Shown here piece by piece: positions 8,437-57,970 of a stretch of DNA of 64,000 nt. Position 1 is the first letter of the stretch. Every line of letters starts with the position of its first letter. Made by a program: the position numbers and the translations under genes. The notes below the pieces were generated by a model. It ran no database searches and was not told the DNA's origin. It was given only the letters and a program-made list of their open reading frames with translations. Origin of the DNA: Isoperla grammatica (Eukaryota; Arthropoda; Insecta; Plecoptera; Perlodidae); NCBI GenBank assembly GCA_945910005.1, contig OX246747.1, positions 38,693,190 to 38,757,189 of the forward strand, written 5' to 3'.

Positions 8437-11400
8437 ATGACAAACAGGAACTCTGTTCCGTTGTCGTACCTCCGAGACGATGGTAACACGAATAGAGCGA
8501 ACGAGAGGCCGTTCACTGGCCCGGAGATTGACGACATAGAGCCGGCAGATTCGGGGATTGACGATGGATTATTGCCGCCGCCAAGGAGACCGTCGTTGAC
8601 GCCGTCCAATCCAAACTATCCACCGAGTCCGTCGGGTTTTCCTTCATTCAACCCGGAAATACCGATAAATACCGTGAGTTCCAATTACTAGGTTTCGGGC
8701 CTACGTTTGTCATTGAAGCAAAGTCTGAACTAGCCTGCCAGTGTGAAACATAGGTCTAATGCAACAACAACAATTGTTAGATATAGACCACAAGCTCGCT
8801 TATTTTAGTTCAATATCGATGCGAGGATAAACAGAAATGCATCAAGCAGGCCTGGAGTAGGGCCTAGTTGACCTGTGATTTTGGTTTAACTCATGTCGTA
8901 AATCGTAATCCCTTTAAAGTAAATACTTTAAATAGTAGGATATAATAGAATTTAGGTGTGTGTCGTTCAGAAACGTTTACTAAAAACTGGCTTCATTAAC
9001 TCTTGGATTGGAGGACATTTCGTAGTTGCCCTTTTTTATGTATGTACCGCATACACGTGCGTCGGTCTATTATGTCTATCGTTCTAAGTGTCGCCTGATA
9101 TTGTAGGAACCGGGAAGGAGAGTGGATGTCAACGTCTACCAACAAAAGAAGACGCTAGCGCAGGGCATGATGGATCTGGCCCTGTTGAGCGCAAACGCCA
9201 ACCAACTTCGGTACGTCCTTGGAATGAGAGCCACCCATCCGTATTTCTACCCGAGCATCGTGTTCATCAGTCTCTCGTTGATCTTGCAGGTAAGCTATGA
9301 AGATGAATGAGCTACAATCCATTAATTCAAATAACAAAATCAAATTTCTCGACAATTCAAGGCTCTCCTAATCTAAAAGACATGTGTATATATATCTGTC
9401 TTAGCCTGTAGGCCCTATCTGTTTTAAATTTTTACACCTAAATGGAAGCCAAAATTTCTTTAAGAAAATTAGAGAACGCCACACTTGTAGTTTGCAAGGT
9501 AGGACCACGAAGTGTTCATTCGGCACGACTTAAACTTAACGCTCTCGTTCCTGTGTATGCAGTAATGTAGGTAATTGATTATGCGCACCACTGAAGGCCA
9601 ACTACCATTAAGATTAGGCATAACAGATTTACATTGCATAATGTCAGGTCTACTTGCATGTTAATTAGGTGACTGCTATGCTTGGCCTTGGTATTTCAGC
9701 TGTTGTTGGCGGTTTCAGTGTTCCCATTTTGTGTACGTACATTGTGTCATTTTAAATAGTATTGATTATTTATTCTAAAGCAGAAAACTAGAATGTTGTT
9801 ACCACTTTGAATAGAGACTTGAAGCTATAAAAAAATGTCTGTGACTGGGATTCGAGCCCAAGACCCCTGTTACCGGGCAAGCGACGGGCTGACCTGGGTT
9901 TGAGAGGCCTATTTAAACATTCTCTTTCTCCTAAAGTGTGTGTATGTCCAGCTGAAATGTTGAGCATAAAATTGTCTCTAATAGATGATTATTTCAACAG
10001 AATATAAAGCCTGTATTACACAGTCAAACTTTTTCATCCAACTCCTTGAATTCAAGGACAAAAGCGCATCAAAAACAGTCAGTATGTTGTCAAATACAAC
10101 AATAAGAATTATTTATTGATGCGCTTTTGTCCTTGAATTCAAGAAGTTGGATGAAAAAGTTTGACCGTGTAAAGCCTGTATTACACAGTCAAACTTTTTC
10201 ATCCAACTCCTTGAATTCAAGGACAAAAGCGCATCAAAAACAGTCAGTATGTAGTCAAATACAACAATAGGAATTATTTATTGATGCGCTTTTGTTCTTG
10301 AATTCAAGGAGTTGGATGAAAAAGTTTGACCGTGTAACACAGGCTTAATACATATTAAGAAATTCCAACAAAATTCGAATTTTTTGTCAGTTAAACTTTG
10401 ATTGTATCTGTTTGTTGATAAGTATTTGTGTGTCTGTTACGTGTGCAGGTGGCGGTGGGCGTGGGGCTCATCATGAACAGCCGCTACAACATCAACAAGG
10501 ACCAGGACTGGATTGTATCTGTTTGTTGATAAGTATTTGTGTGTCCGTTACGTGTGCAGGTGGCGGTGGGCGTGGGGCTCATCATGAACAGCCGCTACAA
10601 CATCAACAAGGACCAGGACTGGATTGTATCTGTTTGTTGATAAGTATTTGTGTGTCCGTTACGTGTGCAGGTGGGCGTGGGGCTCATCATGAACAGCCGC
10701 TACAACATCAACAAGGACCAGGACTGGATTGTATCTGTTTGTTGATAAGTATTTGTGTGTCCGTTACGTGTGCAGGTGGCGGTGGGCGTGGGGCTCACCA
10801 TGAACAGCCGCTACAACATCAACAAGGACCAGGACTGGATTGTATCTGTTTGTTGATAAGTATTTGTGTGTCCGTTACGTGTGCAGGTGGGCGTGGGGCT
10901 CATCATGAACAGCCGCTACAACATCAACAAGGACCAGGACTGGATTGTATCTGTTTGTTGATAAGTATTTGTGTGTCCGTTACGTGTGCAGGTGGCGGTG
11001 GGCTCATCATGAACAGCCGCTACAACATCAACAAGGACCAGGACTGGATTGTATCTGTTTGTTGATAAGTATTTGTGTGTCCGTTACGTGTGCAGGTGGC
11101 GGTGGGCGTGGGGCTCATCATGAACAGCCGCTACAACATCAACAAGGACCAGGACTGGATTGTATCTGTCTGTTGATAAGTATTTGTGTGTCCGTTACGT
11201 GTGCAGGTGGGCGTGGGGCTCATCATGAACAGCCGCTACAACATCAACAAGGACCAGGACTGGATTGTATCTGTTTGTTGATAAGTATTTGTGTGTCCGT
11301 TACGTGTGCAGGTGGCGGTGGGCGTGGGGCTCATCATGAACAGCCGCTACAACATCAACAAGGACCAGGACTGGATTGTATCTGTTTGTTGATAAGTATT

Positions 11401-14400
11401 TGTGTGTCCGTTACGTGTGCAGGTGGCGGTGGGCGTGGGGCTCATCATGAACAGCCGCTACAACATCAACAAGGACCAGGACTGGATTGTATCTGTTTGT
11501 TGATAAGTATTTGTGTGTCCGTTACGTGTGCAGGTGGCGGTGGGCGTGGGGCTCATCATGAACAGCCGCTACAACATCAACAAGGACCAGGACTGGATTG
11601 TATCTGTTTGTTGATAAGTATTTGTGTGTCCGTTACGTGTGCAGGTGGGCGTGGGGCTCATCATGAACAGCCGCTACAACATCAACAAGGACCAGGACTG
11701 GATTGTATCTGTTTGTTGATAAGTATTTGTGTGTCCGTTACGTGTGCAGGTGGCGGTGGGCGTGGGGCTCATCATGAACAGCCGCTACAACATCAACAAG
11801 GACCAGGACTGGATTGTATCTGTTTGTTGATAAGTATTTGTGTGTCCGTTACGTGTGCAGGTGGCGGTGGGCGTGGGGCTCATCATGAACAGCCGCTACA
11901 ACATCAACAAGGACCAGGACTGGATTGTATCTGTTTGTTGATAAGTATTTGTGTGTCCGTTACGTGTGCAGGTGGCGGTGGGCGTGGGGCTCACCATGAA
12001 CAGCCGCTACAACATCAACAAGGACCAGGACTGGATTGTATCTGTTTGTTGATAAGTATTTGTGTGTCCGTTACGTGTGCAGGTGGCGGTGGGCGTGGGG
12101 CTCATCATGAACAGCCGCTACAGCATCAACAAGGACCAGGACTGGATTGTATCTGTTTGTTGATAAGTATTTGTGTGTCCGTTACGTGTGCAGGTGGCGG
12201 TGGGCGTGGGGCTCACCATGAACAGCCGCTACAACATCAACAAGGACCAGGACTGGATTGTATCTGTTTGTTGATAAGTATTTGTGTGTCCGTTACGTGT
12301 GCAGGTGGGCGTGGGGCTCATCATGAACAGCCGCTACAACATCAACAAGGACCAGGACTGGATTGTATCTGTTTGTTGATAAGTATTTGTGTGTCCGTTA
12401 CGTGTGCAGGTGGCGGTGGGCGTGGGGCTCATCATGAACAGCCGCTACAACATCAACAAGGACCAGGACTGGATTGTATCTGTTTGTTGATAAGTATTTG
12501 TGTGTCCGTTACGTGTGCAGGTGGCGGTGGGCGTGGGGCTCATCATGAACAGCCGCTACAACATCAACAAGGACCAGGACTGGATTGTATCTGTTTGTTG
12601 ATAAGTATTTGTGTGTCCGTTACGTGTGCAGGTGGCGGTGGGCGTGGGGCTCATCATGAACAGCCGCTACAACATCAACAAGGACCAGGACTGGATTGTA
12701 TCTGTTTGTTGATAAGTATTTGTGTGTCCGTTACGTGTGCAGGTGGGCGTGGGGCTCATCATGAACAGCCGCTACAACATCAACAAGGACCAGGACTGGA
12801 TTGTATCTGTTTGTTGATAAGTATTTGTGTGTCCGTTACGTGTGCAGGTGCAGGTGGGCGTGGGGCTCATCATGAACAGCCGCTACAACATCAACAAGGA
12901 CCAGGACTGGATTGTATCTGTTTGTTGATAAGTATTTGTGTGTCCGTTACGTGTGCAGGTGGCGGTGGGCGTGGGGCTCATCATGAACAGCCGCTACAAC
13001 ATCAACAAGGACCAGGACTGGATTGTATCTGTTTGTTGATAAGTATTTGTGTGTCCGTTACGTGTGCAGGTGGCGGTGGGCGGTGGGCTCATCATGAACA
13101 GCCGCTACAACATCAACAAGGACCAGGACTGGATTGTATCTGTTTGTTGATAAGTATCTGTGTGTCCGTTACGTGTGCAGGTGGCGGTGGGCGTGGGGCT
13201 CATCATGAACAGCCGCTACAACATCAACAAGGACCAGGACTGGATTGTATCTGTTTGTTGATAAGTATTTGTGTGTCCGTTACGTGTGCAGGTGGCGGTG
13301 GGCGTGGGGCTCATCATGAACAGCCGCTACAACATCAACAAGGACCAGGACTGGATTGTATCTGTTTGTTGATAAGTATTTGTGTGTCCGTTACGTGTGC
13401 AGGTGGCGGTGGGCGTGGGGCTCACCATGAACAGCCGCTACAACATCAACAAGGACCAGGACTGGATTGTATCTGTTTGTTGATAAGTATTTGTGTGTCC
13501 GTTACGTGTGCAGGTGGGCGTGGGGCTCATCATGAACAGCCGCTACAACATCAACAAGGACCAGGACTGGATTGTATCTGTTTGTTGATAAGTATTTGTG
13601 TGTCCGTTACGTGTGCAGGTGGCGGTGGGCGTGGGGCTCATCATGAACAGCCGCTACAACATCAACAAGGACCAGGACTGGATTGTATCTGTTTGTTGAT
13701 AAGTATTTGTGTGTCCGTTACGTGTGCAGGTGGCGGTGGGCGTGGGGCTCATCATGAACAGCCGCTACAACATCAACAAGGACCAGGACTGGATTGTATC
13801 TGTTTGTTGATAAGTATTTGTGTGTCCGTTACGTGTGCAGGTGGCGTGGGGCTCATCATGAACAGCCGCTACAACATCAACAAGGACCAGGACTGGATTG
13901 TATCTGTTTGTTGATAAGTATTTGTGTGTCCGTTACGTGTGCAGGTGGCGGTGGGCGTGGGGCTCATCATGAACAGCCGCTACAACATCAACAAGGACCA
14001 GGACTGGATTGTATCTGTTTGTTGATAAGTATTTGTGTGTCCGTTACGTGTGCAGGTGGCGGTGGGCGTGGGGCTCATCATGAACAGCCGCTACAACATC
14101 AACAAGGACCAGGACTGGATTGTATCTGTTTGTTGATAAGTATTTGTGTGTCCGTTACGTGTGCAGGTGGCGGTGGGCGTGGGGCTCATCATGAACAGCC
14201 GCTACAACATCAACAAGGACCAGGACTGGATTGTATCTGTTTGTTGATAAGTATTTGTGTGTCCGTTACGTGTGCAGGTGGCGGTGGGCGTGGGGCTCAT
14301 CATGAACAGCCGCTACAACATCAACAAGGACCAGGACTGGATTGTATCTGTTTGTTGATAAGTATTTGTGTGTCCGTTACGTGTGCAGGTGGCGGTGGGC

Positions 14401-17400
14401 GTGGGGCTCATCATCAACAGCCGCTACAACATCAACAAGGACCAGGACTGGATTGTATCTGTTTGTTGATAAGTATTTGTGTGTCCGTTACGTGTGCAGG
14501 TGGGCGTGGGGCTCATCATGAACAGCCGCTACAACATCAACAAGGACCAGGACTGGATTGTATCTGTTTGTTGATAAGTATTTGTGTGTCCGTTACGTGT
14601 GCAGGTGGCGGTGGGCGTGGGGCTCATCATGAACAGCCGCTACAACATCAACAAGGACCAGGACTGGATTGTATCTGTTTGTTGATAAGTATTTGTGTGT
14701 CCGTTACGTGTGCAGGTGGCGGTGGGCGTGGGGCTCATCATGAACAGCCGCTACAACATCAACAAGGACCAGGACTGGATTGTATCTGTTTGTTGATAAG
14801 TATTTGTGTGTCCGTTACGTGTGCAGGTGGCGGTGGGCGTGGGGCTCATCATGAACAGCCGCTACAACATCAACAAGGACCAGGACTGGATTGTATCTGT
14901 TTGTTGATAAGTATTTGTGTGTCCGTTACGTGTGCAGGTGGCGGTGGGCGTGGGGCTCATCATGAACAGCCGCTACAACATCAACAAGGACCAGGACTGT
15001 ATTGTATCTGTTTGTTGATAAGTATTTGTGTGTCCGTTACGTGTGCAGGTGGGCGTGGGGCTCATCATGAACAGCCGCTACAACATCAACAAGGACCAGG
15101 ACTGTATTGTATCTGTTTGTTGATAAGTATTTGTGTGTCCGTTACGTGTGCAGGTGGCGGTGGGCGTGGGGCTCATCATGAACAGCCGCTACAACATCAA
15201 CAAGGACCAGGACTGGATTGTATCTGTTTGTTGATAAGTATTTGTGTGTCCGTTACGTGTGCAGGTGGGCGTGGGGCTCATCATGAACAGCCGCTACAAC
15301 ATCAACAAGGACCAGGACTGGATTGTATCTGTTTGTTGATAAGTATTTGTGTGGCCGTTACGTGTGCAGGTGGCGGTGGGCGTGGGGCTCATCATGAACA
15401 GCCGCTACAACATCAACAAGGACCAGGACTGGATTGTATCTGTTTGTTGATAAGTATTTGTGTGTCCGTTACGTGTGCAGGTGGCGGTGGGCGTGGGGCT
15501 CATCATCAACAGCCGCTACAACATCAACAAGGACCAGGACTGGATTGTATCTGTTTGTTGATAAGTATTTGTGTGTCCGTTACGTGTGCAGGTGGCGGTG
15601 GGCGTGGGGCTCATCATGAACAGCCGCTACAACATCAACAAGGACCAGGACTGGATTGTATCTGTTTGTTGATAAGTATTTGTGTGGCCGTTACGTGTGC
15701 AGGTGGCGGTGGGCGTGGGGCTCATCATGAACAGCCGCTACAACATCAACAAGGACCAGGACTGGATTGTATCTGTTTGTTGATAAGTATTTGTGTGTCC
15801 GTTACGTGTGCAGGTGGGCGTGGGGCTCATCATGAACAGCCGCTACAACATCAACAAGGACCAGGACTGGATTGTATCTGTTTGTTGATAAGTATTTGTG
15901 TGTCCGTTACGTGTGCAGGTGGCGGTGGGCGTGGGGCTCATCATGAACAGCCGCTACAACATCAACAAGGACCAGGACTGTATTGTATCTGTTTGTTGAT
16001 AAGTATTTGTGTGTCCGTTACGTGTGCAGGTGGGCGTGGGGCTCATCATGAACAGCCGCTACAACATCAACAAGGACCAGGACTGTATTGTATCTGTTTG
16101 TTGATAAGTATTTGTGTGTCCGTTACGTGTGCAGGTGGCGGTGGGCGTGGGGCTCATCATGAACAGCCGCTACAACATCAACAAGGACCAGGACTGGATT
16201 GTATCTGTTTGTTGATAAGTATTTGTGTGTCCGTTACGTGTGCAGGTGGGCGTGGGGCTCATCATGAACAGCCGCTACAACATCAACAAGGACCAGGACT
16301 GGATTGTATCTGTTTGTTGATAAGTATTTGTGTGGCCGTTACGTGTGCAGGTGGCGGTGGGCGTGGGGCTCATCATGAACAGCCGCTACAACATCAACAA
16401 GGACCAGGACTGGATTGTATCTGTTTGTTGATAAGTATTTGTGTGTCCGTTACGTGTGCAGGTGGCGGTGGGCGTGGGGCTCATCATCAACAGCCGCTAC
16501 AACATCAACAAGGACCAGGACTGGATTGTATCTGTTTGTTGATAAGTATTTGTGTGTCCGTTACGTGTGCAGGTGGCGGTGGGCGTGGGGCTCATCATGA
16601 ACAGCCGCTACAACATCAACAAGGACCAGGACTGGATTGTATCTGTTTGTTGATAAGTATTTGTGTGGCCGTTACGTGTGCAGGTGGCGGTGGGCGTGGG
16701 GCTCATCATGAACAGCCGCTACAACATCAACAAGGACCAGGACTGGATTGTATCTGTTTGTTGATAAGTATTTGTGTGTCCGTTACGTGTGCAGGTGGGC
16801 GTGGGGCTCATCATGAACAGCCGCTACAACATCAACAAGGACCAGGACTGGATTGTATCTGTTTGTTGATAAGTATTTGTGTGTCCGTTACGTGTGCAGG
16901 TGGCGGTGGGCGTGGGGCTCATCATGAACAGCCGCTACAACATCAACAAGGACCAGGACTGGATTGTATCTGTTTGTTGATAAGTATTTGTGTGTCCGTT
17001 ACGTGTGCAGGTGGCGGTGGGCGTGGGGCTCATCATGAACAGCCGCTACAACATCAACAAGGACCAGGACTGGATTGTATCTGTTTGTTGATAAGTATTT
17101 GTGTGTCCGTTACGTGTGCAGGTGGCGGTGGGCGTGGGGCTCACCATGAACAGCCGCTACAACATCAACAAGGACCAGGACTGGATTGTATCTGTTTGTT
17201 GATAAGTATTTGTGTGTCCGTTACGTGTGCAGGTGGCGGTGGGCGTGGGGCTCATCATGAACAGCCGCTACAACATCAACAAGGACCAGGACTGGATTGT
17301 AGCTGTTTGTTGATAAGTATTTGTGTGTCCGTTACGTGTGCAGGTGGGCGTGGGGCTCATCATGAACAGCCGCTACAACATCAACAAGGACCAGGACTGG

Positions 17401-19436
17401 ATTGTATCTGTTTGTTGATAAGTATTTGTGTGTCCGTTACGTGTGCAGGTGGCGGTGGGCGTGGGGCTCATCATGAACAGCCGCTACAACATCAACAAGG
17501 ACCAGGACTGGATTGTATCTGTTTGTTGATAAGTATTTGTGTGTCCGTTACGTGTGCAGGTGGCGGTGGGCGTGGGGCTCATCATGAACAGCCGCTACAA
17601 CATCAACAAGGACCAGGACTGGATTGTATCTGTTTGTTGATAAGTATTTGTGTGTCCGTTACGTGTGCAGGTGGCGGTGGGCGTGGGGCTCATCATGAAC
17701 AGCCGCTACAACATCAACAAGGACCAGGACTGGATTGTATCTGTTTGTTGATAAGTATTTGTGTGTCCGTTACGTGTGCAGGTGGCGGTGGGCGTGGGGC
17801 TCATCATGAACAGCCGCTACAACATCAACAAGGACCAGGACTGGATTGTATCTGTTTGTTGATAAGTATTTGTGTGTCCGTTACGTGTGCAGGTGGCGGT
17901 GGGCGTGGGGCTCATCATGAACAGCCGCTACAACATCAACAAGGACCAGGACTGGATTGTATCTGTTTGTTGATAAGTATTTGTGTGTCCGTTACGTGTG
18001 CAGGTGGCGGTGGGCGTGGGGCTCATCATGAACAGCCGCTACAACATCAACAAGGACCAGGACTGGATTGTATCTGTTTGTTGATAAGTATTTGTGTGTC
18101 CGTTACGTGTGCAGGTGGCGGTGGGCGTGGGGCTCACCATGAACAGCCGCTACAACATCAACAAGGACCAGGACTGGATTGTATCTGTTTGTTGATAAGT
18201 ATTTGTGTGTCCGTTACGTGTGCAGGTGGCGGTGGGCTCATCATGAACAGCCGCTACAACATCAACAAGGACCAGGACTGGATTGTATCTGTTTGTTGAT
18301 AAGTATTTGTGTGTCCGTTACGTGTGCAGGTGGCGGTGGGCGTGGGGCTCATCATGAACAGCCGCTACAACATCAACAAGCACCAGGACTGGATTGTATC
18401 TGTTTGTTGATAAGTATTTGTGTGTCCGTTACGTGTGCAGGTGGCGGTGGGCGTGGGGCTCATCATGAACAGCCGCTACAACATCAACAAGGACCAGGAC
18501 TGGATTGTATCTGTTTGTTGATAAGTATTTGTGTGTCCGTTACGTGTGCAGGTGGCGGTGGGCGTGGGGCTCATCATGAACAGCCGCTACAACATCAACA
18601 AGGACCAGGACTGGATTGTATCTGTTTGTTGATAAGTATTTGTGTGTCCGTTACGTGTGCAGGTGGCGGTGGGCGTGGGGCTCACCATGAACAGCCGCTA
18701 CAACATCAACAAGGACCAGGACTGGATTGTATCTGTTTGTTGATAAGTATTTGTGTGTCCGTTACGTGTGCAGGTGGCGGTGGGCGTGGGGCTCACCATG
18801 AACAGCCGCTACAACATCAACAAGGACCAGGACTGGATTGTATCTGTTTGTTGATAAGTATTTGTGTGTCCGTTACGTGTGCAGGTGGCGGTGGGCGTGG
18901 GGCTCATCATGAACAGCCGCTACAACATCAACAAGGACCAGGACTGGATTGTATCTGTTTGTTGATAAGTATTTGTGTGTCCGTTACGTGTGCAGGTGGG
19001 CGTGGGGCTCATCATGAACAGCCGCTACAACATCAACAAGCACCAGGACTGGATTGTATCTGTTTGTTGATAAGTATTTGTGTGTCCGTTACGTGTGCAG
19101 GTGGCGGTGGGCGTGGGGCTCATCATGAACAGCCGCTACAACATCAACAAGGACCAGGACTGGATTGTATCTGTTTGTTGATAAGTATTTGTGTGTCCGT
19201 TACGTGTGCAGGTGGCGGTGGGCGTGGGGCTCATCATGAACAGCCGCTACAACATCAAGAAAGACCAGGACTGTCACAAGGCGGACCGAATCAACGACTT
19301 CACCGTGCTCGGGATCTTCCTCGTGACCATCATCAACGTGTTCATATCTGCGTTCGGGGTGGACAACGCCAACCCTTGGACCGGACTCACCGAGCAGCTG
19401 GTGCTGACTGGGGAGAACGCGACCACCTACTCATAG
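8437..19436 (+). CDS. Ninjurin A, three coding exons, last exon preceded by 80 decoy copies
   Basis: Exons are 8437-8673 (disordered acidic/proline-rich N-terminus), 9107-9289 and 19212-19436, all phase 0, giving 214 aa. Ninjurin family blocks are KKTLAQGMMDLALLSANANQL, split here between residues of exon 2, then PSIVFISLSLILQ (first membrane segment), then VAVGVGLIMNSRYNI and INDFTVLGIFLVTIINVFIS (second hydrophobic segment). Ninjurins are two-pass plasma-membrane proteins in homophilic adhesion; vertebrate NINJ1 clusters to rupture membranes in lytic death. Exon 3 must be taken from the terminal repeat copy, because only this one reads NIKKDQDCHKAD and on to the second segment. Every upstream copy reads NINKDQDWIVSVC and stops. 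The intron 2 acceptor is GTGTGCAG. The start at 8437 is the first ATG in the exon-1 frame; a 5' noncoding exon is likely. Confidence 0.88.
9830..9910 (-). mobile_element. Probable tRNA-derived SINE fragment in ninjurin A intron 2
   Basis: Read on the - strand, the sequence has a B-box-like GGGCTCGAATCCC ending with a CAGTCACAG segment and a T run. Upstream on that strand is tRNA-like TTGCCCGGTAACAGGG. Only about 80 bp is recognisable; it could alternatively be a decayed tRNA pseudogene. Confidence 0.4.
10008..10345. mobile_element. Two tandem fold-back MITEs with TAA target duplication
   Basis: Each copy has inverted arms that begin AGCCTGTATTACAC and include CTTGAATTCAAG and GATGCGCTTTTGT. 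The first copy runs 10008 to about 10171 and the second from about 10173 to 10345; they share a central TAA. Outer flanks are TAA at 10005-10007 and 10346-10348. TAA/TTA duplications fit PIF/Harbinger MITEs. The element ends only 54 bp before the large array. Confidence 0.75.
10400..19273 (+). repeat. 111/105-bp minisatellite, 81 copies of ninjurin A 3' splice site plus exon-3 start
   Basis: Each unit holds about 49 bp of intron end (from GATTGTATCTG through CCGTTACGTGTGCAG) and about 62 bp of exon-3 start. Acceptors run from exon position 10449 to 19212, a distance of 8763 bp. By hand count there are 61 steps of 111 bp, 16 of 105 bp (loss of GCGGTG) and 3 of 104 bp (near 11000, 13840 and 18230), which sum exactly to 8763. 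That gives 81 copies including the functional one. Units differ by isolated changes such as ATCATG/ACCATG, ATCAAC, GTGTCC/GTGGCC and CTGGATT/CTGTATT. In the ninjurin frame every decoy ends in TGA a few codons after the exon fragment. In another frame most units are open, which creates long meaningless open frames. Confidence 0.95.
15000..16951 (+). repeat. 981-bp higher-order duplication within the ninjurin A array
   Basis: A nine-unit pattern (six 111-bp and three 105-bp units, 981 bp) is repeated. Diagnostic changes recur at a constant offset of 981: CTGTATT at 15000 and 15981, GTGGCC at 15684 and 16665, and the ATCATCAAC variants near 15506 and 16487. This shows a recent block duplication superimposed on the older unit amplification. 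Confidence 0.88.
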
Positions 19437-19448
19437 GTAGATGGGGTG

Positions 19449-19520
19449 GTCTACCAACCCCTGGACCGGACTCACCGAGCAGCTGTGCTGACGGGGGAGA
19501 ACGCAACCACCTACTTGTAG
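19449..19520 (+). repeat. Partial copy of the ninjurin A coding end, just after the stop codon
   Basis: Thirteen bases after the TAG at 19434-19436, the DNA repeats the last about 67 bases of the coding region (from the NPWTGLTEQ codons to ENATTY) and ends in its own TAG. The copy has a 1-base deletion in the GCTGGTGCTG stretch, so it is frameshifted in the middle. It lies in the 3' UTR. Confidence 0.8.
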
Positions 19521-19589
19521 ACACGGTGGTCGTGTTTTCTAGCTTTTACCAAAGATTACTGAGTGGGGAAGATGTTTCATCGCCGTGTT

Positions 19590-21760: not shown

Positions 21761-21801
21761 TGGCAAACTGTTGCAATATGTATATTTAGTCTCGATTAAC
21801 C

Positions 21802-28259: not shown

Positions 28260-28264
28260 GCTTC

Positions 28265-33384: not shown

Positions 33385-33990
33385 ATCCTCGACGCTGCCT
33401 CTGGCAGTCACGTGATTCTGTACACCTTTGAAATTAAATTGTTATAATACCTACTACTATGGAACAATCTATTTTCAAATGTTACGTCAATGTGATCGTT
33501 ACTCATTGTTGTCAGTGAAGATTTAGAGGACCGTGATTAACTCTATTTAAAACTGTTCTTAACGTTCTGTTCGAGTTTCAGTTAGAATTCAGGGACAAAA
33601 ACAAATCAAAGAAAGTGGAGCATTGTTGTATTTTATTATCAACTCATGTTTTGATTCCTTTTTTGTCCTTGAATTGAAGGAAACTTGAAAGGAACATTGA
33701 ACCGTCTAAAACGGTTAAGATTATTGGCCCGAACCCCAGGGCACCAACAAGTGGCAATGATTCGCAACCCCCTCCTCCTCCCCCTCATGGTCCTTCCTCA
33801 AGCAGCTATAGCAACATCAGACCACACCCTCATCTTGACTGGCTATTTGCTTATGTCTCTAACCACGACTGAAACCCTTTGAAGACGCCAGAATTACACG
33901 AGGTCTCGCAAAACGAAACGGAACTAGATGATTTTGGAGCCGTCATAGCACATAATGAGTGCTCTAAAAAAATCTACCACTGAAAATCGG
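33385..33990. other. 3' flank of the RSP3 gene
   Basis: AAATTAAATTG near 33430 may be part of the 3' UTR. A weak fold-back (TTCAGGGACAAAA / TTTTTGTCCTTGAA, about 33588-33676) is the only structure seen. Confidence 0.4.
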
Positions 33991-37165: not shown

Positions 37166-37207
37166 AAGGCCCCTGTTATGCTTGTAGTGCGAGCATCTCC
37201 TCAACAG

Positions 37208-48510: not shown

Positions 48511-49104
48511 TTCCCCCCACTCCTCACGTCCTTATCTTCATAGCCTTATCTTTACATCCTTATCTTACCTTCCTTATCTTCACATCCTTATCTCTACATC
48601 CTTATCTTCACCCCCTTATCTTCACATCCTTATCTTCACTTCCTTATCTTTCCATCCGATCTGTGTGTGTGTGTTGAGTTCTCATCAATATATAATTATG
48701 CACTATAAACTCATAAAGATATAAAAGATATAGTAATATATCAACAACAAAACTGATAGCATTTGATTTGTGCATGACCCAGCGATGATTCATTGCGTTT
48801 TAACCAACGATTTAGGAGTTGGGTAACTTTGTGGATCCAGGAACTTATGTTTGGCTATGTTTGTAATTTTATTTATAACACGTATTTATATTCTATTCAG
48901 TTATAAAACTGATTTATACAAAGGAGGATAATACACAATTAATAATGTAAACATCATAAAATAGCAAGTTTATCAACACAAACAACTATTTAAAAGAGAT
49001 CATAAAACAAACATTAATAAACTGTTTTCAGAACTGATCTATGGTTCTTAGTTAGAAGTAATCACGGCTCTCTAGATCAATTTTTAAAAAATATTGTTCA
49101 TTTA
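48511..49104. other. 3' flank between the converging UGT genes
   Basis: A short tandem of CCTTATCTTCACATCC-like units (16-18 bp) occupies 48528-48655 in the UGT-A 3' UTR. The rest is AT-rich and should hold the polyadenylation sites. Confidence 0.6.
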
Positions 49105-49979: not shown

Positions 49980-49995
49980 TTAAGGACACCACGTG

Positions 49996-52900
49996 TTAAA
50001 CAGTTCGGCCGTCTTCGGGTGGCGGCACGAAAGCTCGGGTACGCTCGGGTTCCATCTTCGCACAACAGAGTAATCTGAAGACCCTCTTGGCTATCTTAAC
50101 GAACAACAGCGCCGCCAGGATCGCGCCGAGCGCCGTTGCGCCGATCAAGTCCAGCAACAGGTACTTGTAGAGTTTCAAACCGCGCGCCGCGGATCGCAGG
50201 TGTTTGGCGCCTTTATGTCTGATGACGTACTCGGTCCAGAACACAGCCTTCTCGAGGGGCGGGACCGGATGGTCGCGGAATCTGGCGGAAACGAGGCGGG
50301 CGTTCTCGGTGTAGCTACAAACACACAGTGATAATAATAGACTGTATTAGTGATGACGTCAGATTGAATGGCGGACGAGCTATCTGACTCCAAACAACTT
50401 TCCTGAAAAGTAGTTATTATTTAAAGTAGTAATTGTATCATTACAATACTTGACTTATCAATTTAATCAACTTCTTTATCACTGTTTCGTGTTAGGGAAA
50501 ACGAATTATCTGAACGGATAACCCTCGCTACAATGTTTGCAAAAAGAAAACTATCTGTCAACTGTCAACTGTCATGATTGTTTGGAGTCACAAATACGGT
50601 TCGTCATTGGTTGACAGGGGAAACGTGATGTCACACTAATATACTGTATTAATAGTATAATCGTTTGAATGAAACCTGCAGATGCCCCTTTTCAGGGGAC
50701 CATGTATTTTGGGCTGGGCAAGAGTGACAACACCAGTATTTGCCTTCTGACTGAGGAAAATCTCTGAAAAACTTTCAATCAAGGTTCCCTATGGTGAGGC
50801 GAACAACAAACGACTACACTGCAGCGCTTCGAGCGTTCCGGCCACTGAGCTCTGCCTGCTAGAAGTCACCGAAAACCCCTCTAGAAGGCAGTGAAAAGAT
50901 TCCAAAGAAGTCAAGTAGTGTTTCCAACGTCTTAGAAATTCGCGTTGTTGAAAGTTGTGTGTATCCAATATTCAGTGACTGTTGGCCGGATCGCTCGCAA
51001 CGCTCTCTGTGCACTTGTTACGCCTCCCCTTAGAACCGGCGACCTATAGAATGCGAGAACACGCAAGTACCTGTAAATCTTCTCTACTAAGAATGTTACA
51101 GCTGTGACGACAGCAGATTGCTCGATATGTCGAGCCGACTATATAAAACTATATCAAGATCACCTTCTCTTGTGAATGACGTCATTCAGAGCCCAGAGCA
51201 GTGATTGGCTGGTGATGTTGTCATAGTCTAGATAGATGCCGAACCCCGAGCGCTGAGCCTTGTGCACGTTGAAGAACTGGTCGCCGTAAATGGGGATGCC
51301 GACTATAGGCTTGGAGTGATACACGGCCTCCTGCATACCCAGCAGGCCGCCGTGCGTCAGGAAGGCCTTGACGTTAGAGTGCGCTGGAAACAAGAGAACA
51401 TCGATAACAGAAGGCAAAGACCTTAGGATATACAATTAAGATCTTTGTCCTCTAAAAATCCTCCTAGCAGAGTTTTTTAGCTGCTCCACGTGCAGCGAAG
51501 TTTATTAGCCTCACGGGGAATGTGTCCAGTGACAACGCCTGCCAACAGACGCACCGATAGTGTCACATTTGTCACTGCACTATATTATAATCTATGACGA
51601 CCACACCTGGCTGGATACGTGGAGGAACTATATTGTTAAACTTGTCCCAACTCTCTAACTTGTAAGAAATACCAACCTAATTTTCTGCCATCTACTGTAA
51701 ACAGGTAGATTAAATATACTTTACGCCACTGGGTTGGATACACGGTCATTAGTATATTACAGATGCCGTGACTAATGCGGCTTGTGCACTCTGCTAAGTG
51801 GAAGACCGTTTTTACGAATATGTACACGAAAGCAAGAGTTGAAACAGCGTGCATGAAAGGTAAGATTGCTGGGTTTGCATAAAATATTATGTTGGAACTA
51901 CCTAAGACGTCCGCTTGAGGGATCCACTCTTCCAGTCTCACATTCTTGGGAAGCCTCGGTAGCAGACCTCTCCTCTTCCACAGCACCACCTGCTTTAGCC
52001 TCGAGAAGGCGGACAAGAATGCTTCTAGCTTCTCGGGGGCCTCAAAGAACTCGCCCACATGAGAGCCCATGGTGAACACGACCACTCCGTCCGTTGAAGA
52101 GTCCAGGAACGCTTGGAGGTCCTGTAAAGTAGCCTGCTTTAGTCTCGAGAAGGCGTCCAAGAAGGCTTCTAGCTTCTCGGGGGCCTCAAAGAACTCCCCC
52201 ACATGTGAGCCCATGGTGAACACGACCACTCCGTCCGTTGAAGAGTCCAGGAACGCTTGGAGGTCCTGTAAAGTAGCCTGCTTTAGTCTCTAGAAGGCGG
52301 ACAAGAAGGCTTCTAGCTTCTCGGGGGCCTCAAAGAACTCGCCCACATGAGAGCCCATGGTGAACACGACCACTCCGTCCGTTGAAGAGTCCAGGAACGC
52401 TTGGAGATCCTGTAAAGTAGCCTGCTTTAGTCTCTAGAAGGCAGACAAGAAGGTTTCTAGCTTCTCGGGGGCCTCAAAGAACTCGCCCACATGAGAGCCC
52501 ATGGTGAACACGACCACTCCGTCCGTTGAAGAGTCCAGGAACACTTGGAGGTCCTGTAAAGTAGCCTGCTTTAGTCTCGAGAAGGCAGACAAGAAGGCTT
52601 CTAGCTTCTCTTGGGCTCCTGCTTGGAGGTCCTGTAAAGTAGCCTGCTTTAGTCTCGAGAAGGCAGACAAGAAGGCTTCTAGCTTCTCTTGGGCTCCTGC
52701 TTGGAGGTCCTGTAAAGTAGCCTGCTTTAGTCTCGAGAAGGCGTCCAACAAGGCTTCTAGCTTCTCTTGGGCTCCTGCTTGGAGGTCCTGTAAAGTAGCC
52801 TGCTTTAGTCTCTAGAATGCGTCCAACAAGGCTTCTAGCTTCTCTTGGGCTCCTGCTTGGAGGTCCTGTAAAGTAGCCTGCTTTAGTCTCTAGAAGGCGT

Positions 52901-55900
52901 CCAACAAGACTTCTAGCTTCTCTTGGGCTCCTGCTTGGAGGTCCTGTAAAGTAGCCTGCTTTAGTCTCGAGAAGGCAGACAAGAAGGCTTCTAGCTTCTC
53001 TTGGGCTCCTGCTTGGAGGTCCTGTAAAGTAGCCTGCTTTAGCCTCGAGAAGGCGGACAAGAAGGCTTCTAGCTTCTCGGGGGCCTCAAAGAACTCCCCC
53101 ACATGAGAGCCCATGGTGAACACGACCACTCCGTCCGTTGAAGAGTCCAGGAACGCTTGGAGGTCCTGTAAAGTAGCCTGCTTTAGTCTCGAGAAGGCAG
53201 ACAAGAAGGCTTTTAGCTTCTCTTGGAGCTCCTGCTTGGAGCTCGTGTAAAATAACACTCGACTGATCTCTTAGTTGACTGTATTTACGAATGTGTCAAG
53301 AAATATGTTGGTTTTCGTTGAACCACCGTGCATGAAGCGGGATAAAGATGATGGAAGGAAGATGGAAAGTGGAGGAAAAAGAGGAATAGAAAATAGTGGA
53401 GGGATTTGATGAACACATTTTCGGATTAATTATTCTAAAACAAAGGAACAGCCATATTTTAAACGTGTCAGCGTTGCTTACGCCAACTACACGCTATACT
53501 TAAATATATCTTTAAGTAATGTTTATAATTAAATGTTCCGTGTAGTCATCCAGAAATTGTCATTTAAATAAGACAGCCATTTAAAAGTAGCCATTTAAGT
53601 ATAGCGTGTAGAACCCGTATTAGAAGAAGGTTAGCGGGCAATTAAATCTAACAAAATAAATGGCTTTCTCGCTATGCTCATCATTATTTCTGACACATTT
53701 CGGAGATCAGTGCAAAGTTAACCGATGGTCAGTCAGTCAGTCAGTTTCTTTTGGAGTGCTAGATAACCTGTTACCGCCCCCCCCCCCCCCGCCCCCACCT
53801 CCCCCCGGACTCACCGCTGGCAGTTTCCGTGCAGATCCAATGTGCATCCCCGCAACATCCATCACATTCGGCAACATCGGCCTGGGTAGATTCATGCTGA
53901 CGTCATTGTTGACGAAGACGAAGGCGAGCCTCCGTTGCAACTGTTCAGTAGTCGGCCCCTCTTCCCCCCCGTAGAAGTATTGGCTGGTGATCTCGTCGTA
54001 TCTGTCCATCTCACCCATCTTGGTCAGCTTCTTCTCGAGGATGTAGTGAGCGTTGGTGAGGCGCTGCCAGAAGGACATCCGGTCTTTGTAGGCGATGTGC
54101 ACATCCGGTACATAAGAGTAGGGGCTGACGTTGCCCATCATGTCGTGGATCTAAGGGCATGGAGACAACACACTCGTTCACGAACACTTAGGTCCGAATG
54201 CATAGTTCACACTCAAGCCCTCCTCAACTCAGTCTCTCCTCAGCCTCACCTAGCCACCAATCACGGACCGGCATTGCCATGTGAACGACTCTGTGATTAA
54301 TGGCTAGGCGAGGCTGAGGAGAGGCTGAGTTGAGGAGGGCTTAAGTGTGAACTATGCATTCGAGCTTTAGATACGTTAGGAAAGTTGAACGCTCATCCAC
54401 AATGAAAATGAACAGTGCCAGTAAGGTTTTAACCAAGGAGGATTTAGTGTTATGGAGAGGCCTTGCCGTATACTGCGCCGTGCGAGCGCGTGAAGCCGTC
54501 TAGCGCTTCCCCCACTCTCGCACCTCGCCACCACCTTCCCCTACGACAGGCAAGCGGCAAGAGGAGCAATGCTGTTGCACGTTGGAAGTTCAGTCATTGC
54601 AATCTTACCATTTAATGTTGGGATCGGTTTACTGAAGAATACCTTTTTCATCACGCTTGATTTTATAATGGTACCTCGCACTTTCATAGTATATAATAAC
54701 ATATTGTATGTCACACAGAATTATGTATTAATGAACGAAGGAATAACAGGAGGAAAGCTTATAATCAACAAATAAATGTTAATATATTATATATACGTTT
54801 GAAACTTTGTCACGTTTATTTGCACACATACACAATAAAATAGTGTAAAGTATAATGCAATGTTATTAATTATTAATTTAATCAAAAGTAATAGGACTAT
54901 TGGTTTTAATATTACTAATAATTTGTGCCTACTAAGAGTATAATAGTAGAATACATAAAATAGTACAGTATAAAATAAATAGTAAATAATATATAAAATA
55001 ATAAATAAAATAATATAGTAATAGTAATAGTAATAGTAATACATAGAATAGTATAAAATAGTAGAATAGTAGAATGCAACAATGTAGCAATGTAGTTATG
55101 CGTTAAATGTTTATTTGCCAATAGAAATTACCTTCTTCAGATGAGCTGGAAATGCAGGGAAAACCGATGGGACGACATTAGGACGAAGACGAACCGTCTG
55201 ACCAGTCTTATCAAAATCGTCGGGTGTAAAATGTACAGAGCACAAGACGTGTCGTGGTTTGGATTTCCAATCTTTCCGCCTAACAGCGTTCTCCCACTTT
55301 CGTCTTAGGTCTTCATTTTTTGGAAACCTGTAGCACAACAATATAATGCAGTTTAAATGGGACATAACTATAACTATGCCTACTTAGTTAATTATTCCAG
55401 TTAATCTAAGCTCAATTATTGCACTTCGATTTACACTTACCTATGGAAAGTTATCTTGTTTGGTTCACAACACTTCGTATTCCTGTTCGTGCAACCATAA
55501 GCCTCGCAGTTATACACCATCGTAGCATACCAAGAAATAGAAACAAATAGACCAAGACAAAGGCTAGAACACAAAATCGTACAGAACGTTTGGTCTTTAA
55601 TCCAGAACAATGAACGTGGTGTTCGCGCAGTGCCGCGCAGTGCCTGCCTGCCCGACTGCCCGTCTTTCTTGCCTGTACTAATATGGCCGCTCGGGCGTTT
55701 GAGGGGAAATGCTTCCATGGGAATCGGCTTCACGCCGGCGGAGTCAGGGCCTCTCCTCTACACTAAATTCTCCTTGGTTTTAACCAATCGTGTTGGCTGT
55801 TGAGAGCTCATTGTTGCTCATCGGCCAAAAGGAATTCATAGTTGGCCCCTACACCTAGGAGTGCCCATTGTTACCAAGGTTACAGTTGTTTGCATGTTAT

Positions 55901-57031
55901 TTCCCATAAACGAAACAAATCCATAGCAACAATGGGTGCCCCTAGGTGTAGGGGCCAACTATGAATTCCTCATAATAGTTAGTTTTCTTGCCACCAGATA
56001 GTTGTTGACTACTCACGTTGTTGTCGACGCAATGGACGTAGATTCCGATAACGCTCGCGTCGAACTTGTGCGCGAACCCCAGGAAGCATTCGTGAAGGTA
56101 CAACTCTGTGATGATCAGATCGAAGTGAGCGGTCGTCGAGCGGATCAGAGCGCTCACTTGGGGATCGTTCAGAAAGTGATGACATCGGGGGAAGCCGGTA
56201 CCGTTTACAAAGATGTCGTTGTCGGCGGAGACATTGTCGCGGTTTAGTTTGGTGTTTAGCGCCACGTCTGTGGACAGAACGCGTATTGTTTCTATTGTTG
56301 CAGAATTGATCTAGAAGGCCGTGATTTGCTCTATCAAAGGGTCCTTGATAGTTATGTTGAGGAGCAATTTTCATTGTTGTGCATTGTTGTCATTGAAGAT
56401 CTAGAGGGCTGGGATTAGCTCCATCTAAGAGTCCTAGATGAATTCTGAAAAAGGTCTATTAGTTACGTTGAGGACTAATTTATTCTTGGGCTTAACGTCT
56501 CATATTTTTGCAACTTGGCAAATCGAGACAATGAGTGGGTGAAATATGAAGATGAAATAGTGGTCTGTTTGGAGGAAAAGGACAAGTAGGAGGGCGGGGA
56601 GGAATGGGGAAATGGGAGGAAAAGGGAGTGGGGAGGTTGTGGACTGCATTTCGTAAACTGACTACGTCATGCGTATGTCAAATTCCTTTTGAACGCGGCA
56701 AGTATACTGTATACTGGATTTTTCTGTAGGAACGCTTACATTGCCGCTGTCATACTGTCTGCCATATATAGATATACATACTCGGAATATTGTTTCTCAC
56801 TTGCTTACCAGATCCGAACCATTTATGCACCACTGCCAGGTCTGTGTAATTGGCCAATGGTTTCTCCTGAGGATGTGAGCTGATGACAGTCACGGAGTGT
56901 CCCCTGGCGGCCAAAGCTTTAGTTAGCGGCTCGTAGGCAATCACGTGACTTTTCGAGGTGTCTGCGAAGATAGCTAAGATGTTTGCACCGCTAGCTGGCG
57001 TCGCTAGCGCCAGGAACAGTGTGGTACATAT
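49996..57031 (-). CDS. UDP-glycosyltransferase B, six coding exons seen, first coding exon missing
   Basis: On the - strand the exons are 57031-56809, 56267-56017, 54150-53815, 52121-51902, 51383-51164 and 50314-49996 (phases 1,0,0,1,2), 522 codons. Seen: a hydrophobic start (TTLFLALATPASG), DTSKSHVIAYEPLTKALAAR with the family's His, FDLIITELYLHECFLGFAHK, DGVVVFTMGSHVGEFF, EEWIPQADVL, FLTHGG...E...P...P...GDQ, WTEYVIRHKGAKHLRSAA, a membrane helix (LLLDLIGATALGAILAALLF) and a longer tail than UGT-A. The exon 1-2 join and the 220-nt exons 4 and 5 match UGT-A. The first exon seen has no in-frame ATG: it starts at CCGCAG|ATATGT and an upstream frame is closed by TGA, so a short upstream coding exon is needed. 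Exon 4 uses the acceptor nearest the exon body; earlier copies are decoys. A THAP gene lies in intron 2. Confidence 0.87.
50790..51060 (-). mobile_element. Dispersed repeat copy in UGT-B intron 5
   Basis: On the - strand it has GACTTCTTTGGAATC, GGTTTTCGGTGACTTCTAGC, AGGCAGAGCTCAGTGGCCGG and AACGCTCG, the same order as the tandem array and its right flank at 32180-33115. This is the unamplified form of that repeat. Confidence 0.6.
52121..53250 (-). repeat. 144/78-bp array of UGT-B exon-4 acceptor and exon start, 11 good copies plus one decayed
   Basis: Exon starts (GACCTCCAAG or variant, after CTACTTTACAG) lie at 52121, 52265, 52409, 52553, 52631, 52709, 52787, 52865, 52943, 53021 and 53165, with a decayed one near 53243. 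Steps are three of 144, six of 78, then 144 and 78. The 144-bp unit carries 129-132 bp of exon start (to SRLKQ) joined to the 12-bp acceptor region; the 78-bp unit lacks 66 bp, from inside DLQA to EKLEAF, replaced by AGAQ. Both lengths are multiples of three, so the UGT frame runs through, except where TCG became TAG (near 52290, 52434, 52813, 52891). Confidence 0.92.
53263..53814. other. UGT-B intron 3, right part
   Basis: Contains an inverted pair near 53493-53620 (CTACACGCTATACTTAA / TTAAGTATAGCGTGTAG), probably a small MITE, and a poly-C tract at 53777-53810 directly beside the exon-3 donor. Confidence 0.5.
54191..54366. mobile_element. Fold-back MITE, family A, with TTA target duplication
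   Basis: Arms GGTCCGAATGCATAGTTCAC and GTGAACTATGCATTCGAGCT; TTA at 54188-54190 and 54367-54369. It lies in UGT-B intron 2, 40 bp from the exon-3 acceptor. Confidence 0.78.
54370..55110. other. AT-rich part of UGT-B intron 2
   Basis: Contains an (AATAGT)n / (ATAA)n-like low-complexity tract at 54930-55075. This would be the 3' flank of the THAP gene. No further exon was recognised. Confidence 0.5.
55111..55520 (-). CDS. Small THAP-type zinc-finger protein nested in UGT-B intron 2
   Basis: On the - strand exon 1 is 55520-55441 (ATG GTG TAT AAC TGC) and exon 2 is 55327-55111, joined GT-AG in phase 2; 98 aa. The THAP domain fills the protein: C5-x4-C10, a conserved FP after the intron, W38 in the RRKWENAVRRKDW helix, C56-x2-H59 (LCSVHF), then F(x)DD-F and the terminal VVPSVF, equivalent to the AVPTIF box. 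THAP domains are sequence-specific zinc DNA-binding modules found in regulators and in P-element transposases. If exon 2 instead ends at a donor 55131-55126 (GTAATT), the protein continues in exons I did not find. It is on the same strand as UGT-B. It could be a host gene, a retained 5' part of a P-like transposon, or a decayed copy. Confidence 0.75.
55831..55970. mobile_element. Fold-back MITE, family B, second copy
   Basis: GGAATTCATAGTTGGCCCC and GGGGCCAACTATGAATTCC arms with CTACACCTAGG / CCTAGGTGTAG, inverted relative to the copy at 25133-25279. Confidence 0.75.
56480..56665 (-). mobile_element. Dispersed retroelement 3' end, copy 3, inverted
   Basis: On the - strand: AAATGCAGTCCACAACCTCC, pyrimidine tract, TTTCACCCACTCATTGTCT, GTTGCAAAAATATGAGACG. 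It matches the 3' half of the copies at 36850 and 41825. It lies in UGT-B intron 1. Confidence 0.58.
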
Positions 57032-57970
57032 CTGCGGGTACAAGAGCTTTGGTCAGCGTGACTTTCTGCTAAGATGTTTGCACCGCTAGCTGGCGTCGCT
57101 AGCGCCAGGAACAGTGTGGTACATATCTGTGGGTACAAGAGCTTTGGGCAGCGTGACTTTCTGCTAAGATGTTTGCACCGCTAACGAACAGTGTGGTACA
57201 TATCTGTGGGTACAAGAGCTTTGGTCAGCGTGACTTTCTGCTAAGATGTTTGCACCGCTAACGAACAGTGTGGTACATATCTGTGGGTACAAGAGCTTTG
57301 GTCAGCGTGACTTTCTGCTAAGATGTTTGCACCGCTAACGAACAGTGTGGTACATATCTGCAGGTAGAAGAGCTTTGGTCAGCGTGACTTTCTGCTAAGA
57401 TGATTGCGTCGCTAGCGCAAGGAACAGTGTGGTACATATCTGCGGGTAGAAGAGCTTTGGTCAGCGTGACTTTCTGCTAATGGCGGGTTTACATAACTGA
57501 CTAGTGACTAACGACTAGCGACTAAGAGCGCGTTCATGAAACTAACTAGCCGCAACAGGCTTCTCTCATTGGCCGACAGTGGGAATACTGCGTGCTGATT
57601 GGCCGTGACTAAGGACTTGACCAAGGAGTTGAGCTATGTTCAACTTCTTAGTCAAGTCAAGACAAACCTTAGTCACAGCCAATCGGAGAGCAGTATTCTC
57701 AATCGTAGCCAATGAAAGAAGCTCGTGGCTTAGTCACGGGCTCGCTTAGTCGCTAATCGTTAGTCACTAGTCAGTTATGTAAACCCGCCATAAGATGTTT
57801 GCGTCGCTAGCGCAAGGAACAGTGTGGTACATATCTGCGGGTAGAAGAGCTTTGGTCAGCGTGACTTTCTGCTAACATGTTTGCACCTAAGGTTTGCACC
57901 GCTAACGAACAGTGTGGTACATATCTGCGGGTATAAGAGCTTTGGTCAGCGTGACTTTCTGCTAAGACGA
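57002..57970 (-). repeat. Array of about eight copies of UGT-B exon-1 acceptor region
   Basis: Each unit (94 or about 78 bp) has on the - strand the acceptor (CTTGTACCCGCAG or variant) followed by ATATGTACCACACTGTTCC, some signal-peptide codons, then AACATCTTAGCAGAAAGTCA, CGCTGACC and AAAGCTC. Exon starts are near 57031, 57125, 57203, 57281, 57359, 57437, 57830 and 57920. Several copies lack the GCTAGCGACGCCAGCTAGCG segment. The array is split by a MITE at 57481-57790. Confidence 0.85.
57481..57790. mobile_element. MITE inserted in the UGT-B exon-1 array, TAA target duplication
   Basis: Ends TGGCGGGTTTACATAACTGA and TCAGTTATGTAAACCCGCCA are perfect inverted repeats, followed inward by CTAGTGACTAACGA / TCGTTAGTCACTAG. 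TAA flanks at 57478-57480 and 57791-57793; removing the element restores CTGCTAAGATG, the sequence of intact units. Direct evidence of insertion after the array formed. Confidence 0.9.

What the first reader, a model, noticed from the sequence alone, without database searches (positions are those of the whole stretch)
8437..57970. Recurrent minisatellites seeded on exon-intron junctions in at least four genes
Independent arrays in ninjurin A (acceptor x81), ninjurin B (donor x2), UGT-A (exon-4 donor x39, exon-6 acceptor x4) and UGT-B (exon-4 acceptor x11, exon-1 acceptor x8) all have a unit crossing a splice junction. Arrays placed at random would not hit so many junctions. Either junctions are hot spots for tandem duplication in this genome (for example through transcription-linked breaks or template switching), or multiplying splice sites is tolerated or selected. 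This is the best candidate here for an undescribed phenomenon.
Basis: partly seen in the sequence, partly recalled or inferred. Interest (0 to 1): 0.93.

Follow-up and report, generated by a model that had tools for sequence, protein, structure and literature searches.

The report
Splice-site minisatellites in insect genes
In this stretch of insect DNA, six tandem-repeat arrays in four genes each repeat a predicted exon-intron border, up to 81 times, and only the copy at the array's edge gives the full normal protein; the surplus splice sites are likely discarded with the intron, as already reported for the "mirage" repeats of lancelets.

Summary
All six arrays exist with the copy numbers given (81, 2, 39, 4, 11 and 8), and each unit crosses a splice junction in gene models that give ninjurin and UGT proteins. 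The phenomenon is not undescribed. It matches the "mirages" of lancelet Adh3, globin, troponin C and PGBD5 genes, reported not to disturb splicing (PMC3087553, PMC3902484). New here are the host, an insect, and the scale: 81 copies over 8.9 kb, and six arrays in four genes. Of 145 splice-site copies only the 6 edge copies give the normal protein; 138 of the other 139 truncate or shift the frame and one adds 48 in-frame codons. Junction arrays exceed random placement (6 of 12 against 1.2 expected, P=0.0004), but only about twofold against a within-gene, GC-matched control (6 of 10 against 2.7, P=0.02). The likeliest account is ordinary tandem duplication plus a selective filter: a duplicated border goes out with the intron, while an out-of-frame duplication inside an exon is purged. 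A mutational hot spot remains possible. It needs the whole genome, which did not answer in 11 tries.

The parts
10400..19273 (+). Ninjurin A intron 2/exon 3 acceptor array: 81 copies, unit 111 bp (49 bp intron end + 62 bp exon start); real acceptor is the last copy, exon starts 19212
   Evidence: 81 of 81 copies keep GTGTGCAG|G; only copy 81 gives the full C-terminus
8437..8673 (+). Ninjurin A coding exon 1
9107..9289 (+). Ninjurin A coding exon 2
   Evidence: homologues
19212..19436 (+). Ninjurin A coding exon 3 from the last acceptor copy to the stop
   Evidence: (no gap at the border against 7 insect ninjurins)
26642..26809 (-). Ninjurin B donor array: 2 copies, unit 82 bp; real donor is the first in transcript order, exon end 26788
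26788..26955 (-). Ninjurin B exon that carries the duplicated donor
42338..45107 (+). UGT-A exon-4 donor array: 39 copies, unit 71 bp (50 bp exon end + 21 bp intron start); real donor is copy 1, exon end 42387
   Evidence: 39 of 39 keep GGTGAGC; only donor 1 gives 510 aa, the other 38 stop after residue 374
47876..48338 (+). UGT-A exon-6 acceptor array: 4 acceptor copies (exon starts 47914, 48046, 48155, 48264; TRF row 47969-48293), spacing 109-132 bp; real acceptor is the last
47989..48002 (+). CTATACAACACTAG in the filler of the exon-6 array, a 14-mer otherwise present in this window only in the 119-bp array of intron 4 (a trace of template switching, inferred)
   Evidence: 8 matches in the window, 6 in the 119-bp array and 2 in the exon-6 array; 0 in 100 shuffles
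45164..47406 (+). UGT-A intron-4 array: 19 copies of 119 bp, wholly intronic (for comparison, not a junction array)
37178..48510 (+). UGT-A gene: exons 37178-37439, 38374-38588, 40471-40839, 42168-42387, 47433-47652, 48264-48510; 510 aa
51989..53222 (-). UGT-B exon-4 acceptor array: 11 acceptor copies, units 144 and 78 bp; real acceptor is the last in transcript order, exon start 52121
   Evidence: 9 of 10 inner copies give premature stops; the 10th (52265) adds 48 codons in frame
56973..57962 (-). UGT-B second-coding-exon acceptor array: 8 acceptor copies, TRF periods 95 and 77 bp (TRF rows end at 57480; the two outer copies found by pattern); real acceptor is the last in transcript order, exon start 57031
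57481..57790 (-). 310-bp element with terminal inverted repeats and TTA target duplications inside the UGT-B acceptor array, so the array is likely older than that insertion
   Evidence: read in the sequence
49996..58206 (-). UGT-B gene: exons 58206-58198 (predicted), 57031-56809, 56291-56017, 54150-53815, 52121-51902, 51383-51164, 50314-49996; 533 aa

Best explanation
Six tandem arrays in four insect genes repeat a predicted exon-intron border and, in each, only the edge copy gives the normal protein, so the inner copies are likely spliced out as intron and tolerated. Proposed steps. (1) A short segment spanning a border is tandemly duplicated; the breakpoints suggest end joining or template switching (0-7 bp of microhomology, and one filler matching the neighbouring array; read from sequence, mechanism inferred). 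(2) By geometry the outermost copy still joins the whole exon: the last copy for an acceptor, the first for a donor (shown by the reading frames). (3) The spliceosome is predicted to favour that copy because it lies closest to the other end of the exon (exon definition), and most messages from wrong copies would be truncated and decayed (inferred). (4) The array then grows or shrinks by unequal exchange and is homogenised like other minisatellites (inferred from near-identical copies and the 438-bp second period of the ninjurin A array). (5) Duplications wholly inside an exon would survive only in frame, so surviving arrays that contain exon sequence are mostly junction arrays: a selective filter rather than a targeted process (inferred). 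These are mirage minisatellites as described in lancelets, here in an insect.
For: Arrays and counts. Edge-copy rule: of 145 splice-site copies, the 6 edge copies give the normal protein, 138 of 139 others truncate or shift the frame, 1 adds 48 codons in frame. Edge-copy models show no gap at the array-bearing borders of ninjurin A (against 7 insect ninjurins), UGT-A exons 4/5 and 5/6 and UGT-B exons 3/4 (against 7 insect UGTs) (the ninjurin B and UGT-B second-exon borders were not put to this test), and match Pfam Ninjurin and UDPGT. Exon-derived parts of the inner copies are not protected: 44 of 248 exon columns vary against 17 of 164 intron columns in five arrays, pooled Fisher P=0.047. Frame rule: the 2 exon-internal arrays have units of 27 and 18 bp, both multiples of 3, whereas 4 of 6 junction units are not (small numbers). 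Breakpoints; filler 14-mer. Precedents: lancelet mirages do not disturb splicing (PMC3087553 passages; PMC3902484 passages); human CBS 844ins68 is a duplicated intron 7/exon 8 border with the distal site strongly favoured (PMC2630376 passages).
Against: No transcript was available, so use of the edge copy rests on reading frames and homology. Inner sites keep the same core as the real one, so competition is expected; human OCT1 with an 8-bp donor duplication is mis-spliced in 38-52% of minigene transcripts, though in only 0.3-0.6% in liver (PMC8137991 abstract). The filter alone does not fully explain the excess: 6 of 10 genic arrays against 2.28 expected with exon-internal placements barred (P=0.012) and 2.69 when also GC-matched (P=0.02). 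None of the 15 arrays with units under 50 bp crosses a junction, which the filter does not explain. Homogenisation that spares the edge copy shows in the exon part of ninjurin A (0.038 against 0.009) but not in its intron part (0.003 against 0.006) nor in UGT-B exon 4.
Confidence: 0.77

Rival explanations
1. Exon-intron borders are mutational hot spots for tandem duplication in this genome, through transcription- or replication-linked breaks at GC-rich exon edges, and the filter only adds to this.
For: The excess remains after filtering and GC matching: 6 of 10 against 2.69, P=0.02; whole window 6 of 12 against 1.17, P=4e-4. Exons are 57.5% GC, introns 41%. A filler that matches the neighbouring array points to template switching.
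Against: One window, found post hoc; P rises to 0.064 or 0.075 when UGT-A or UGT-B is left out. Breakpoints read by eye share no motif that I could see and have 0 to 7 bp of microhomology. No junction duplicate beyond chance at the other 36 of 42 junctions then modelled (whose controls excluded the listed arrays).
Confidence: 0.25
2. The arrays are retained because splice-site number tunes expression: inner copies divert splicing to stop-containing messages, so copy number sets the yield of full-length protein.
For: 138 of 139 inner sites give truncated or shifted frames. Splice cores are invariant among the inner copies of the five arrays aligned. The title of Lievers 2001, seen in a reference list, links a 31-bp CBS VNTR to reduced activity.
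Against: Invariance of a few core bases is expected from recent homogenisation. No expression or population data. Hiding is enough to explain persistence.
Confidence: 0.1
3. The arrays are assembly artefacts.
For: Long near-identical arrays are collapsed or inflated in poor assemblies; reads could not be checked.
Against: Copies differ by scattered substitutions and unit-length variants (ninjurin A: 61, 16 and 3 units of 111, 105 and 104 bp), and a transposon-like insertion splits one array. The six arrays have different units. The exact copy number could still be wrong.
Confidence: 0.05
4. The host genes are decaying pseudogenes, so the duplications are unselected debris.
For: Heavy repeat load in introns and at exon edges.
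Against: Both UGTs and ninjurin A have intact frames when edge copies are used, ninjurin B an open frame from its first modelled exon to the stop, and all four match their Pfam family.
Confidence: 0.03

Closest known systems
Mirages of amphioxus (Adh3, globins BflGb6 and BflGb9, troponin C, PGBD5), PMC3087553 and PMC3902484 (passages read)
   Same: Minisatellite-like tandem repeats whose unit spans an exon-intron border, at donors and acceptors, with many copies keeping splice signals and the authentic border kept; unit lengths of 10-160 bp are comparable
   Different: Host is an insect, not a lancelet; arrays reach 39 and 81 copies against the 2 to 7 named in the passages seen; no RNA, haplotype or somatic data here
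Human CBS 844ins68 (PMC2630376, passages read)
   Same: Duplication of the intron 7/exon 8 border; splicing strongly favours the distal copy so the mRNA is normal
   Different: One extra copy, a polymorphism, not an array
Human CBS 31-bp VNTR, listed as c.1444_1467+7(16.21) (PMC2630376, passages read)
   Same: Tandem array of 31-bp motifs whose named span, 1444 to 1467+7, crosses an exon end into the intron
   Different: Short unit, one human gene; its effect on splicing was not read here
Human OCT1/SLC22A1 8-bp duplication rs35854239 (PMC8137991, abstract read)
   Same: Duplicated donor at an exon-intron junction
   Different: 8 bp, two copies, mis-spliced in minigenes but hardly in liver
[quoted passage not shown]
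   Same: A tandem duplication crossing an intron-exon boundary
   Different: There a new intron and new exon sequence were created; here the models keep the protein unchanged

Membership tests
Mirage minisatellites | Tandem unit spans an exon-intron border | tested here: met
   6 arrays, borders taken from gene models
Mirage minisatellites | Both 5' and 3' borders can be duplicated | tested here: met
   2 donor arrays and 4 acceptor arrays
Mirage minisatellites | Authentic border kept at the array edge, open frame intact | tested here: met
   6 of 6 arrays by reading frame (ninjurin B model lacks its 5' end)
Mirage minisatellites | Regular mRNA splicing not disturbed | not testable with these tools
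   no RNA data for this species
Mirage minisatellites | Length instability between haplotypes or cells | not testable with these tools
   one assembled sequence only
Mirage minisatellites | Concerted evolution inside the array, edge copy excluded | tested here: inconclusive
   divergence from edge copy against diversity among inner copies: ninjurin A exon part 0.038 against 0.009 but intron part 0.003 against 0.006; UGT-A e4 exon 0.042 against 0.029, intron 0.050 against 0.005; UGT-A e6 exon 0.054 against 0.043, intron 0.113 against 0.147; UGT-B e4 exon 0.082 against 0.089; UGT-B second exon 0.25 against 0.19 in the exon part and 0.035 against 0.050 in the intron part (fixed windows, rough)
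Mirage minisatellites | Occurrence in a cephalochordate, the only host group in the papers read | tested here: not met
   nearest named homologues are insects; host is not part of the structural definition
Intron gain by tandem duplication | A new intron absent from orthologues | not tested
   no orthologous gene structures were fetched
Intron gain by tandem duplication | Protein or mRNA gains sequence from the duplicate | tested here: not met
   edge-copy models show no gap at four array-bearing borders; the penultimate UGT-B e4 acceptor would add 48 codons if used

The most novel reading that the evidence does not exclude
In this insect lineage exon-intron borders are a true hot spot for tandem duplication, driven by template switching linked to transcription or splicing, and the resulting splice-site arrays, up to 81 acceptors deep, act as copy-number rheostats that set how much full-length protein each gene makes.
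Probability: 0.1. Interest if true: 0.88.

Novelty: new member of a known kind. Interest (0 to 1): 0.5.

Why it matters
[quoted passage not shown] Six of them in four genes of one insect stretch suggest that duplication of exon borders is a wider route by which genomes acquire spare splice sites, the raw material for new introns and alternative exons. It also poses a sharp question for splicing: how one acceptor is chosen among 81 nearly identical ones. Whether borders are hot spots or merely safe places could be decided with a whole insect genome and its annotation.

Tried and rejected
Hot-spot reading as the lead: kept only as a rival because the excess shrinks to about twofold under the strict null and depends on both UGT genes.

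Coding expansion: rejected because 138 of 139 inner copies truncate or shift the frame. UGT-B exon 4 is the nearest case, with units of 144 and 78 bp (multiples of 3), but 9 of 10 inner copies run into a stop.

Further hidden junction duplicates: a local alignment scan of the 42 junctions then modelled found the six arrays and two weak hits (control fractions 0.012 and 0.04), one in the low-complexity tract beside the RSP3 acceptor and one at UGT-B exon 2; not counted.

Rfam: no match at gathering threshold in the window. Promoter and terminator scan: bacterial patterns, not informative.

Whole-genome test: asked 11 times in the same form, never answered.

Papers: the original mirage paper (Canestro 2002, NAR) is not held; its content is known here only through PMC3087553 and PMC3902484.
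Full report
What is there. The window is insect DNA: the ninjurin A model is 59-63% identical to ninjurins of Zootermopsis, Periplaneta and Timema, and the best named hits of the UGT-A model are UGTs of a mayfly and a katydid (38% and 44%). The order was not pinned. Six genes were modelled: an eIF4E-type gene (4E-HP, name recalled), ninjurin A, ninjurin B, radial spoke protein 3, UGT-A and UGT-B. With edge copies UGT-A gives one open frame of 510 codons and UGT-B one of 533, ninjurin A 214, and ninjurin B 206 without its 5' end. Ninjurin A and B match the Ninjurin family and both UGTs match UDPGT. UGT-A intron 1 has a GC donor; the other UGT introns are GT-AG.

Arrays. TRF gave 40 rows, which I merged by hand to 27 arrays; one of them, the UGT-B second-exon array, I extended beyond TRF's end (57480) to take in two outer copies found by pattern. 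Of the 27, 6 cross a modelled junction, 11 are intronic, 2 are inside exons and 8 are outside the modelled coding spans.

The edge-copy rule. I translated each gene with each copy used in turn. Ninjurin A: 80 of 81 acceptors give a stop after 6 to 26 residues and only the last gives the full 74-residue end. UGT-A exon 4: only the first donor gives 510 residues; the other 38 stop after 374. UGT-A exon 6: only the last of 4 gives the normal end; the others give 460, 466 or a frame-shifted 602 residues. UGT-B second exon: only the last of 8; the other 7 stop after 17 to 43 residues. UGT-B exon 4: the last of 11 gives 533 residues, the one before adds 48 in-frame codons (581), and 9 stop early (298 to 398). 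Ninjurin B: the second donor runs into a stop. In all, 6 edge copies of 145 give the normal protein, 138 of 139 others truncate or shift the frame, and one is an in-frame insertion. With edge copies, no gap falls at the array-bearing borders of ninjurin A, UGT-A exons 4/5 and 5/6 and UGT-B exons 3/4 when aligned with insect homologues (7 ninjurins of 120 listed and 7 UGTs of 120 listed, chosen by me). The ninjurin B and UGT-B second-exon borders were not tested this way.

Inner copies behave as intron. In the five arrays with enough copies, 44 of 248 exon-derived columns vary among inner copies against 17 of 164 intron-derived columns (pooled Fisher P=0.047; no single array significant). So the exon part shows no coding protection. 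The splice cores are invariant among inner copies in all five, but few bases are involved. The ninjurin B array has only two copies and was left out of this count. Whether the edge copy escapes homogenisation, as reported for lancelets, is mixed: it does in the exon part of ninjurin A and in UGT-A exon 4, but not in the intron part of ninjurin A nor in UGT-B exon 4.

Is the junction excess real? Arrays were collapsed to one unit and re-placed at random. Whole window: 6 of 12 arrays with unit of at least 50 bp, 1.17 expected, P=4e-4. Within genes: 6 of 10, 1.92 expected, P=0.005; barring out-of-frame exon-internal placements, 2.16 expected, P=0.009. Barring all exon-internal placements: 2.28, P=0.012. 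Also matching GC within 3 points: 2.69, P=0.02 within genes and 1.70, P=0.002 over the window. Leaving out one gene at a time gives P from 0.005 to 0.075, worst without UGT-B. None of the 15 arrays with units under 50 bp crosses a junction. The window came to me because a reader noticed these arrays, so the P values are flattering. A modest excess is likely; a hot spot is not proven.

How they may arise. Reading the joins between copies: ninjurin A has no microhomology (computed); by eye ninjurin B shares GACT (4), UGT-B second exon TCTTAGC (7), UGT-A exon 4 one base, UGT-B exon 4 one or two. The UGT-A exon-6 unit carries a filler of roughly 13-20 bp (its 3' limit is unclear because the last bases could be changed intron sequence) that includes CTATACAACACTAG. 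That 14-mer occurs 8 times in the window: 6 in the 119-bp array of intron 4 and 2 in the exon-6 array; 0 in 100 shuffles. That looks like a templated insertion, so template switching or end joining is the inferred origin; the direction of copying is not known. Two arrays have shortened inner units that lost part of the exon (66 bp in UGT-B exon 4; about 23 bp in UGT-A exon 6, read).

The filter. Both exon-internal arrays have units divisible by three (27 and 18 bp); four of six junction units are not. At the end of ninjurin A, the last coding stretch is duplicated just past the stop codon, where the first stop protects the protein. These fit a rule that duplications persist where the mature product is unchanged, on small numbers.

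What is known. [quoted passage not shown] PMC3902484 (passages seen) adds PGBD5 and names troponin C. PMC2630376 (passages seen) gives the human CBS 844ins68 case, in which the distal copy is strongly favoured. PMC8137991 (abstract) shows mis-splicing with an 8-bp donor duplication in 38-52% of minigene transcripts but 0.3-0.6% in liver. PMC4974935 (abstract and results section) shows a boundary-crossing tandem duplication that made a new intron in potato. PMC2809761 (abstract) links nonsense-mediated decay to intron gain in Drosophila. I saw no report of mirages in an insect in the listings, all in one open-access library and most of them capped lists (for example 15 of 1,794); the genome-wide Daphnia tandem-repeat paper holds neither 'splice' nor 'intron-exon' in its main text. 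That is weak evidence of absence.

Verdict. A real and striking set of mirage-type arrays in an insect, larger than those named in the passages read, best explained by hidden tandem duplication. A new member of a known kind. The hot-spot question is open and testable.

Noticed in passing
38589-40470 and 56016-54151: UGT-A and UGT-B have intron 2 at positions 11 codons apart (before IGIY in A, after VDNN in B), and the first codons of UGT-A intron 2 (VGIHVTSPT) resemble the sequence at the start of its exon 3: a possible intron slide or gain by border duplication.
   Followed up: partly
57481-57790: A 310-bp element with terminal inverted repeats and TTA target duplications sits inside the UGT-B acceptor array; short parts of it resemble 40186-40252.
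   Followed up: partly
about 55560-55130: Two predicted exons encoding a THAP domain (PF05485, E=4.5e-19) lie on the same strand inside the UGT-B intron between 56017 and 54150.
   Followed up: partly
19355-19520: The end of the ninjurin A coding sequence is duplicated just downstream of the stop codon.
   Followed up: yes
10005-10337: Two tandem copies of an element with internal inverted repeats in ninjurin A intron 2, just before the 81-copy array; a 70%-identical relative lies at 33585-33681.
   Followed up: partly
45164-47406: The intronic 119-bp array of UGT-A repeats an acceptor-like stretch (consensus TTTTTAATTGCATTTTACAG) about 19 times although it does not match the real exon-5 border.
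   Followed up: no
436-4373: A five-exon eIF4E-type gene with an open frame (Pfam IF4E in one exon; model; the name 4E-HP is recalled) without any junction array.
   Followed up: partly
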